NCBI RefSeq assembly: GCF_900112165.1 | Contig: NZ_FOKY01000009.1 | Location: forward strand, 1 to 38,555 | Reading direction: 5' to 3' | Origin: Brevinema andersonii | GTDB taxonomy: Bacteria; Spirochaetota; Brevinematia; Brevinematales; Brevinemataceae | DNA length: 38,555 bases | Shown here: one piece after another, positions 5,376 to 6,214 of the stretch | Layout of the letters: each line of letters begins with the position of its first letter | Position numbering within the stretch: the stretch's first letter is position 1 | Translations under genes and position numbers: made by a program | Notes under the pieces: generated by a model | What the model was told of the DNA's origin: nothing | The model's database searches: none | The model's input: the letters and a program-made list of their open reading frames with translations, nothing else

Positions 5376-5398
5376 TTAAGAAAAAGAAGGAGTTATTT

Positions 5399-5449
5399 AT
5401 GCGGCTCTCTCTCTCTCTCTCTCTCTCTCTCTCTCTCTCTCTCTTCTAA
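5399..5449 (+). CDS. CT-repeat leader ORF (length-variable leader peptide)
   Basis: AAGGAG at 5387-5392 is followed after 6 bases by ATG (5399), CGG, then 20 CT units. At the present repeat number the product is MR, six Leu-Ser pairs, Leu-Phe and a TAA at 5447-5449. Changing the number of units shifts the frame. With a multiple of three units (18 or 21) the frame runs to a TGA at 5478-5480 that overlaps the ATG of the next gene. With 19 or 22 units it stops at TAG 5467-5469. The good ribosome-binding site suggests real translation; function is inferred. Confidence 0.55.
   Translation: MRLSLSLSLSLSLSLF
5405..5444 (+). repeat. (CT)20 simple sequence repeat
   Basis: Forty uninterrupted bases of CT dinucleotide directly after an ATG-CGG start. 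Long dinucleotide tracts in this position are typical of slipped-strand contingency loci. Confidence 0.98.
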
Positions 5450-5476
5450 ATTTTTATTATTTTATATAGGAATACA

Positions 5477-6214
5477 ATGATGATTAATATTGTTATTCCT
5501 ATGGCAGGCTTAGGTTCACGCTTTTTTCAGCATGGTATTATGATTCCTAAGCCATTAATATTAATAAAAAATTTGCCTTTTTTGTATTATGCTGCAGAAA
5601 GTTTGGTGCGTTTTTATGACTATAACAATCTTATTTTTATTGGTCTAGAAAACCATAATGAAAAAAATATACTCATCGATAATATTTTTAAATATTTTCC
5701 CCGAGCAAAAATTAAATTGCTCAAAGAAACCCCAAACGGAGCCGTATTAACGGCGCGTGAGGCGATTCCTTTAATTGATAATGATTTTCCTGTTGTGTTT
5801 AATGATTGTGATCATATGTTTTATAGCGAAGAATTACGTTTAGCTCAAGCTGAATTTTCTTGTATTGATGGATTTTTATTGACTTTTGCATCTAATAATC
5901 CTAATTACAGTTATTGTTTAAAAGATGATAGCGGAAAAATTATTGGTACAGTAGAAAAAAAAGTAGTTGGCTTTGAAGCTATTGCAGGTGTTTATGGTTT
6001 TAGAAATGTGGAATTGTTTGATCAGGCGACTGGCGAATATCTTATAGATTGTCCTTATTCTGAATTTTTTATGAGTGGAGTTTATAACACTTCGATTTTT
6101 GATAATAAAATCATTAAAAATTATAGTGTTGATTTTAATATTTCATTTGGCACACCGGAAGAATATTTCTCTGTGAAAAATAGTGAACTATTTTCATTTT
6201 TTAGGCCTATATGA
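5477..6214 (+). CDS. sugar- or choline-phosphate nucleotidyltransferase (BcbE/LicC-like)
   Basis: The N-terminus MINIVIPMAGLGSRFFQHG and IPKPLILI is the nucleotide-binding signature of the GT-A nucleotidyltransferase fold. VFNDCDHMF at about residue 115 provides the metal-binding acidic pair. The 245 residues match the small BcbE-like and LicC-like enzymes found in capsule and phosphocholine clusters, which activate a phosphorylated headgroup or sugar with an NTP. The substrate cannot be read from sequence. The start lies in ATGATG (5477 or 5480), and a weak AGGA precedes it at 5468-5471. Its stop overlaps the next gene as ATGA. It sits directly behind the CT-repeat leader, so its translation may be coupled to that leader. 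Confidence 0.8.
   Translation: MMINIVIPMAGLGSRFFQHGIMIPKPLILIKNLPFLYYAAESLVRFYDYNNLIFIGLENHNEKNILIDNIFKYFPRAKIKLLKETPNGAVLTAREAIPLIDNDFPVVFNDCDHMFYSEELRLAQAEFSCIDGFLLTFASNNPNYSYCLKDDSGKIIGTVEKKVVGFEAIAGVYGFRNVELFDQATGEYLIDCPYSEFFMSGVYNTSIFDNKIIKNYSVDFNISFGTPEEYFSVKNSELFSFFRPI

What the first reader, a model, noticed from the sequence alone, without database searches (positions are those of the whole stretch)
5387..5482. CT20 leader ORF that could act as a three-state translational-coupling switch for the glycan cassette
A good Shine-Dalgarno and ATG are followed immediately by 20 CT units. Working out the three frames by hand: at 20 units the leader stops at TAA 5447, well before the nucleotidyltransferase. 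At 19 or 22 units it stops at TAG 5467. At 18 or 21 units it runs to a TGA that overlaps the ATGATG start of that gene, the same overlap style found at the next junction (6211-6214). Slippage would thus change where the leader ribosome terminates relative to a gene with only a weak AGGA of its own. Dinucleotide contingency loci are known, but switching through a separate leader ORF rather than the gene's own frame would be unusual.
Basis: partly seen in the sequence, partly recalled or inferred. Interest (0 to 1): 0.82.

Follow-up and report, generated by a model that had tools for sequence, protein, structure and literature searches.

The report
Repeat-tuned leader gating a sugar cassette
A hypermutable run of 20 CT units sits inside a tiny leader reading frame just before a sugar-building gene set, and its length decides whether ribosomes reach, and probably pry open, an RNA hairpin hiding that gene's start; the same genome does this at a second locus, and a related transcription-level switch is known in Streptococcus gallolyticus.

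Summary
NTase is full length from 5477/5480, and its frame is closed by TAA 5447 at every repeat number, so this is not an ordinary in-gene contingency tract.

New evidence: (1) the genome carries 13 long CT/AG tracts (16-39 units), mostly in or beside glycan genes. (2) A second locus has the same design: promoter, ATG(CT)20 leader, and one register in three running 60 codons to a TAA overlapping the ATG of rfbH (chance about 0.4-0.9%). (3) The NTase SD and ATG lie in a predicted 15-bp hairpin (-12.4 kcal/mol), among the least accessible starts of 112 genes. A ribosome ending at TAA 5447 stops short of it; in the other two registers it would open it.

I therefore predict OFF at 20 units and ON at both 18/21 and 19/22. 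Switching through a separate leader ORF is already known (S. gallolyticus pil1, PMC3894217), but there the hairpin is a terminator. New variant of a known kind. Repeat variation and expression are untested.

The parts
5387..5392 (+). Shine-Dalgarno of the leader ORF (AAGGAG, 6 nt before ATG)
   Evidence: sequence; anti-SD duplex -8.8 kcal/mol, as strong as the top 13% of 112 gene starts
5399..5449 (+). leader ORF in the present 20-unit register: MR(LS)6LF, stop TAA 5447-5449
5405..5444 (+). (CT)20 dinucleotide tract, predicted slippage site
   Evidence: TRF, 20.0 copies, 100%; one of 13 long CT/AG tracts in the genome
5467..5469 (+). TAG stop used by the leader with 19 or 22 units; overlaps the NTase SD
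5478..5480 (+). TGA stop used by the leader with 18 or 21 units; overlaps the NTase ATG (ATGA)
5465..5503 (+). predicted RNA hairpin: 5' arm 5465-5479 (holds SD AGGA 5468-5471 and ATG 5477), loop 5480-5487, 3' arm 5488-5503 with a 1-nt bulge
   Evidence: -12.4 kcal/mol; 3rd most stable and 2nd least accessible of 112 starts
5477..6214 (+). nucleotidyltransferase, 245 aa, first gene of the cassette; full-length N-terminus (MMINIVIPMAGLGSRF)
6211..8037 (+). LPG-synthase-type membrane domain fused to an APH-like kinase domain (608 aa); start overlaps the NTase stop (ATGA)
   Evidence: Pfam
8027..8602 (+). HAD hydrolase, third cassette gene (start taken at the SD-supported ATG 8027)
   Evidence: Pfam, SD -10.2, synteny
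8613..9344 (+). GT2 glycosyltransferase, fourth cassette gene
   Evidence: Pfam

Best explanation
A phase-variable leader ORF that gates translation of a glycan cassette. Slipped-strand mispairing changes the CT number. The strong leader SD loads ribosomes at ATG 5399 in every register. With 20 units (17, 23) they stop at TAA 5447, leaving the hairpin at 5465-5503 folded over the NTase SD and ATG: OFF or low. With 19/22 units they stop at TAG 5467, on the 5' arm of the hairpin and on the NTase SD; with 18/21 they run through the arm and stop at the TGA overlapping the ATG. Both positions unfold the hairpin and place a terminating ribosome where it can reinitiate: ON, possibly at two levels. 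The NTase stop overlaps the next gene's start, so the state should carry down the cassette. SHOWN: tract, registers, stops, intact NTase start, SD strengths (computed), the second leader locus, the genome-wide tract set. PREDICTED: hairpin. INFERRED: slippage, reinitiation, the expression levels, the effect on the surface.
For: Registers and stops exact. NTase frame is closed by TAA 5447 at all repeat numbers, and homologues start at the equivalent Met, so the tract lies outside the gene. Strong leader SD versus weak NTase SD. Hairpin over SD+ATG, -12.4 kcal/mol; 2nd least accessible of 112 starts; chance 0.3% if upstream bases are shuffled and codons replaced by synonyms. With a terminating ribosome's footprint masked, NTase start accessibility is 0.08 at 20 units, 0.99 at 22 and 1.0 at 21. 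Second locus L051: 11/12 sigma-70 promoter with TG, SD, ATG(CT)20; 19/22 units run 60 codons to TAATG at full-length rfbH, 20 and 21 stop at once; such an overlap arises in 0.4-0.9% of shuffles. Other tracts sit in a GT2, FkbM methyltransferase, FGGY kinase, capsule-synthesis and other genes. Engineered coupling elements work with a hairpin over the second RBS and best with stop and start close together (PMC11602170). A leader ORF with a slippage repeat is proven for pil1 (PMC3894217).
Against: No reads, isolates or expression data: variability and output are unproven. The window's ATGA overlap alone is 25-37% likely by chance. With the real upstream bases kept and only codons varied, the hairpin is not exceptional (P=0.2). 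Another ATG at 5364, in a second frame but 14 nt from its nearest SD-like AAGGA, would reach the same TGA at 20 units. In L051 the TAATG came with the duplicated rfbH, since the rfbG-rfbH junction also has it, so only the open frame, not the overlap itself, is independent. No related genome carries the locus, so there is no conservation test.
Confidence: 0.55

Rival explanations
1. Relic: the CT tract and its ATG are the 5' end (signal-peptide-like MR(LS)n) of a former phase-variable membrane protein whose body was replaced when the cassette arrived. NTase is translated independently and the repeat number has little effect.
For: A classical CT contingency gene of this shape exists in the same phylum: L134 MKK(LS)nVFTLLVLSTFILSCG, in frame at 14 units. 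L048 in this genome has MKA(LS)n..LLLWTASCSIQDS and then a stop. The cassette looks horizontally acquired.
Against: The strong leader SD, full-length tract and start-covering hairpin are kept; the same leader-plus-overlap design recurs at rfbH with its own promoter. A useless 40-nt tract would be expected to erode.
Confidence: 0.22
2. Repeat length acts without leader translation: through mRNA structure, small-RNA or mRNA pairing to the CU tract, Rho loading on the pyrimidine-rich tract, or promoter spacing, giving a graded effect rather than a three-register one.
For: SSR-length rheostats at the RNA level exist (tlpB/RepG, PMC8295292). (CU)20 is C-rich and unstructured; (AG)n-bearing mRNAs of the same genome could pair with it.
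Against: Predicted fold and start accessibility do not change from 10 to 30 units. The tract lies downstream of any promoter-like site found, and no terminator-like site was found at 4600-5520.
Confidence: 0.13
3. Transcription attenuation exactly as in S. gallolyticus pil1: the hairpin downstream of the leader is a premature terminator opened by longer leaders.
For: Same leader/repeat/hairpin order.
Against: The hairpin is A+T-rich and has no U-run; zero terminator-like sites in window 4600-5520 and L051 5340-6400. The hairpin covers SD and ATG and extends into the gene.
Confidence: 0.05
4. Conventional contingency locus in which the tract lies within the NTase coding frame.
For: Usual design for CT tracts (H. 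pylori oipA, PMC10564699).
Against: TAA 5447 closes the gene's frame whatever the repeat number; NTase is complete from 5477/5480.
Confidence: 0.02
5. Artefact: unit number or locus misassembled.
For: Draft assembly; long dinucleotide tracts are hard to count.
Against: The tract lies inside the contig with coherent flanks, and 12 others exist; only the exact count of 20 is doubtful.
Confidence: 0.03

Closest known systems
Streptococcus gallolyticus pil1/pil3 leader-peptide phase variation (Danne et al. 2014, PMC3894217)
   Same: SSR inside a separate leader ORF with its own RBS; slippage moves the leader stop relative to a downstream hairpin; one register in three is low, the other two high
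   Different: Pentamer GCAGA instead of CT; the hairpin there is an intrinsic transcription terminator, here it has no U-tract and covers the SD and ATG of the next gene; the target is a glycan cassette rather than a pilus
Helicobacter pylori oipA CT-repeat contingency gene (PMC10564699)
   Same: CT tract just after a start codon, encoding Leu-Ser repeats, predicted slippage
   Different: In oipA the tract lies in the signal peptide of the switched gene itself; here the leader is a separate ORF
Translational coupling by termination-reinitiation with an RBS-sequestering hairpin (natural cases; synthetic synTCE, PMC11602170)
   Same: Upstream translation unfolds a hairpin over the downstream RBS; stop and start overlap or lie close
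   Different: Here the upstream stop position would be heritably switched by a repeat
H. pylori tlpB-hp0102 G-repeat rheostat (PMC8295292)
   Same: SSR in an mRNA leader upstream of a glycan gene, post-transcriptional effect
   Different: Depends on sRNA pairing, no leader ORF

Membership tests
Leader-peptide SSR phase variation (pil1 type) | SSR inside a short ORF with its own RBS, upstream of and separate from the regulated gene | tested here: met
Leader-peptide SSR phase variation (pil1 type) | Repeat number shifts the leader stop from upstream of a hairpin to within or past it | tested here: met
   TAA 5447 versus TAG 5467 / TGA 5478, hairpin 5465-5503
Leader-peptide SSR phase variation (pil1 type) | The hairpin is an intrinsic transcription terminator | tested here: not met
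   no terminator-like site in 4600-5520; no U-run after the stem
Leader-peptide SSR phase variation (pil1 type) | Repeat number varies among cells and tracks expression | not testable with these tools
   one assembly, no reads or isolates; no same-genus genome among those searched
Classical intragenic SSR contingency gene | Tract lies in the coding frame of the switched gene | tested here: not met
SSR contingency locus (general) | Long perfect SSR at a surface-glycan or surface-protein gene, one of several in the genome | tested here: met
   13 tracts of 16-39 units, mostly at glycan genes
Translational coupling | Stop overlaps or lies close to the downstream start | tested here: met
   ATGA at 18/21 units; 7 nt gap at 19/22; 27 nt gap at 20
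Translational coupling | Downstream RBS weak or sequestered | tested here: met
   SD -4.2; accessibility 0.11, 2nd lowest of 112; structure predicted only
Translational coupling | Downstream expression depends on upstream translation | not testable with these tools
   needs reporter assay

The most novel reading that the evidence does not exclude
A purely translational, heritable leader switch: DNA slippage in a separate leader ORF sets where ribosomes terminate relative to a hairpin that hides the next gene's start. It is used at least twice in one genome (this cassette and rfbH) to set surface-sugar synthesis, alongside a set of ordinary in-gene CT/AG contingency tracts.
Probability: 0.5. 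Interest if true: 0.66.

Novelty: new variant of a known kind. Interest (0 to 1): 0.56.

Why it matters
If true, a frameshifting repeat can switch a gene without lying in it: any gene with a hidden start can be put under phase variation by a repeat-bearing mini-ORF before it, including horizontally acquired cassettes or duplicated genes, with no added residues in the enzyme. Surveys that look only for repeats within coding frames would miss such loci. The model is directly testable because it predicts a period-3 pattern with one low and two high registers.

Tried and rejected
In-gene contingency reading: rejected. Repeat-length effect on equilibrium RNA folding: none from 10 to 30 units. Terminator/attenuator reading: no terminator-like site. 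Same-species or same-genus genomes for repeat-number comparison: none among the searched relatives, and the window's own genome or near relatives may be left out of genome contigs. Same-family genomes have no CT tract of 8+ units of the searched form, and their SIMPL neighbourhoods lack the cassette. Searches of 393 genomes of the phylum for SD-ATG-(CT)8: only the two leaders here plus an antisense match in this genome; the other hits were a classical in-gene lipoprotein (L134) and ORFs without a clear role in another genome. Literature searches for phase variation with uORF or translational coupling found no translational precedent; a broader one found pil1.

Full report
OBSERVATION. AAGGAG (5387-5392) precedes ATG 5399; after one CGG codon come exactly 20 CT units (5405-5444). 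Changing the unit number by computation gives three end points: TAA 5447-5449 (17, 20, 23), TAG 5467-5469 (16, 19, 22) and TGA 5478-5480 (18, 21, 24), the last overlapping ATG 5477 as ATGA. The NTase reading frame is itself closed by TAA 5447 whatever the repeat number. NTase homologues begin at the equivalent methionine, so the gene is whole without the leader.

IS IT MORE THAN CHANCE? The tract certainly is. The genome (1.50 Mb, 39 contigs; the window is the whole of contig C9) holds 13 CT/AG tracts of 16-39 units. The ATGA overlap is not significant by itself: shuffled spacers give a start-overlapping stop in one register in 25-37% of cases.

THE OTHER TRACTS. Several are ordinary in-gene switches encoding Glu-Arg repeats: an FGGY kinase (431 aa at 18 units, now 17), a GT2 transferase (371 aa at 27, now 26), a capsule-synthesis-type protein, an FkbM methyltransferase C-terminus, and a kinase/aldolase pair that fuses at 17 units. 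Others lie upstream of genes. This is the profile of a contingency-locus repertoire centred on surface glycans. Same-family genomes have no tract of the searched form.

A SECOND LEADER LOCUS. In contig C23 (L051) a near-consensus promoter TTGACA-17-TACAAT with TG is followed by GAGG, ATG and (CT)20. With 20 or 21 units the ORF stops at once. With 19 or 22 it runs 60 codons or so to a TAA that overlaps the ATG (TAATG) of full-length rfbH. Shuffled spacers do this in 0.4-0.9% of cases. Caution: the TAATG itself came with rfbH, because an identical rfbH copy after rfbG in contig C26 has it too, so the independent fact is the 46-codon open stretch after the tract. Both leaders stand at 20 units, a short register, in this assembly.

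THE HAIRPIN. Folding the leader mRNA shows a hairpin at 5465-5503, -12.4 kcal/mol, that holds the NTase SD (AGGA 5468-5471) and ATG 5477 in its 5' arm. Among 112 gene starts of this genome it ranks third for stability and second for inaccessibility. Shuffling the upstream bases and replacing codons by synonyms gives such stability in 0.3% of trials; keeping the true upstream bases, in 20%. The fold does not depend on CT number. It depends on where ribosomes stop: with the terminating ribosome's footprint masked (P-site -12 to +15, an assumption from general knowledge), start accessibility is 0.08 for 20 units, 0.99 for 22 and 1.0 for 21. The leader SD is strong (-8.8) and the NTase SD weak (-4.2).

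MECHANISM. The best reading is a leader-ORF switch acting on translation: OFF at 20 units, ON at 19/22 and 18/21. Engineered coupling elements behave this way: a stem of 6 bp or more over the second RBS suppresses independent initiation, and coupling falls off as the stop-start distance grows (PMC11602170). Slippage, reinitiation and the phenotype are inferred.

THE CASSETTE. NTase, an LPG-synthase-type/APH fusion and a HAD hydrolase form a block found in the same order in many Bacillota and a few other genomes, with 39-47% identity for NTase. Relatives in the window's own order have only 23-32% matches for NTase, and of ten genomes of the order tested for the fusion protein only the window's own has it. 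SIMPL neighbourhoods in two same-family genomes lack the cassette. It was probably acquired horizontally. Its substrate is unknown.

KNOWN OR NEW. CT tracts just after a start codon are classical (H. pylori oipA, PMC10564699). A leader ORF with a slippage repeat that opens a downstream hairpin is shown for S. gallolyticus pil1 and reported similarly for pil3 (PMC3894217), including the rule 'one register low, two high'. What differs is the hairpin: there a terminator, here no terminator-like sequence but a stem over the start site. It works like pil1; it fails the terminator criterion for being the same. I file it as a new variant of a known kind.

LIMITS. One draft genome; no reads, isolates or expression data. 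An alternative leader start at ATG 5364, poorly spaced from its nearest SD, would reach the TGA in the 20-unit register and would blur the OFF state if used. The organism was not identified.

Noticed in passing
L051:6338-7637, L054:7695-8994, C11:31214-32513, C21:18854-20153: rfbH is in two exactly identical 1300-bp copies (four contig ends), identity starting precisely at TAATG: one after rfbF-rfbG, one after the CT20 leader, with two different downstream regions. Looks like a recent duplication or conversion; the assembly cannot say which upstream joins which downstream.
   Followed up: partly
L050:5725-5782: AG29 tract between pstB and phoU, 8 nt before the phoU ATG; the GAGAG run could itself serve as a Shine-Dalgarno sequence of variable reach, in a phosphate-uptake operon where phase variation would be unexpected.
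   Followed up: no
L047 tracts (three) and L045:5259-5294: In-gene (ER)n contingency tracts in FGGY kinase, GT2, FkbM methyltransferase and a kinase/class II aldolase pair; FGGY kinase and GT2 appear out of frame (OFF) by one unit in this assembly.
   Followed up: partly
L048:1140-1310: MKA(LS)n followed by a lipobox-like signal peptide at 30/33 units (LFFILILLLWTASCSIQDS) and then a stop: a phase-variable lipoprotein start without a body.
   Followed up: partly
L054:5470-5575: A (TA)n run directly adjoining an AG39 tract, about 240 nt upstream of rfbF; compound microsatellite that could alter promoter spacing.
   Followed up: no
genome-wide (window 5405-5444, L051:6159-6198 versus AG-sense tracts): Two leader mRNAs carry (CU)20 while about ten loci carry (AG)16-39 in the sense direction; their RNAs could form long perfect duplexes in trans. 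Pure speculation, untested.
   Followed up: no
L134 (more distant genome, same phylum): Classical CT14 lipoprotein contingency gene, MKK(LS)n signal peptide, in frame at 14 units: the ordinary design for comparison.
   Followed up: yes
window 5477-9344: NTase/LPG-APH/HAD cassette syntenic in Bacillota genomes and missing from the tested same-order genomes; unnamed pathway, no NCBIfam equivalog above cut-off.
   Followed up: partly
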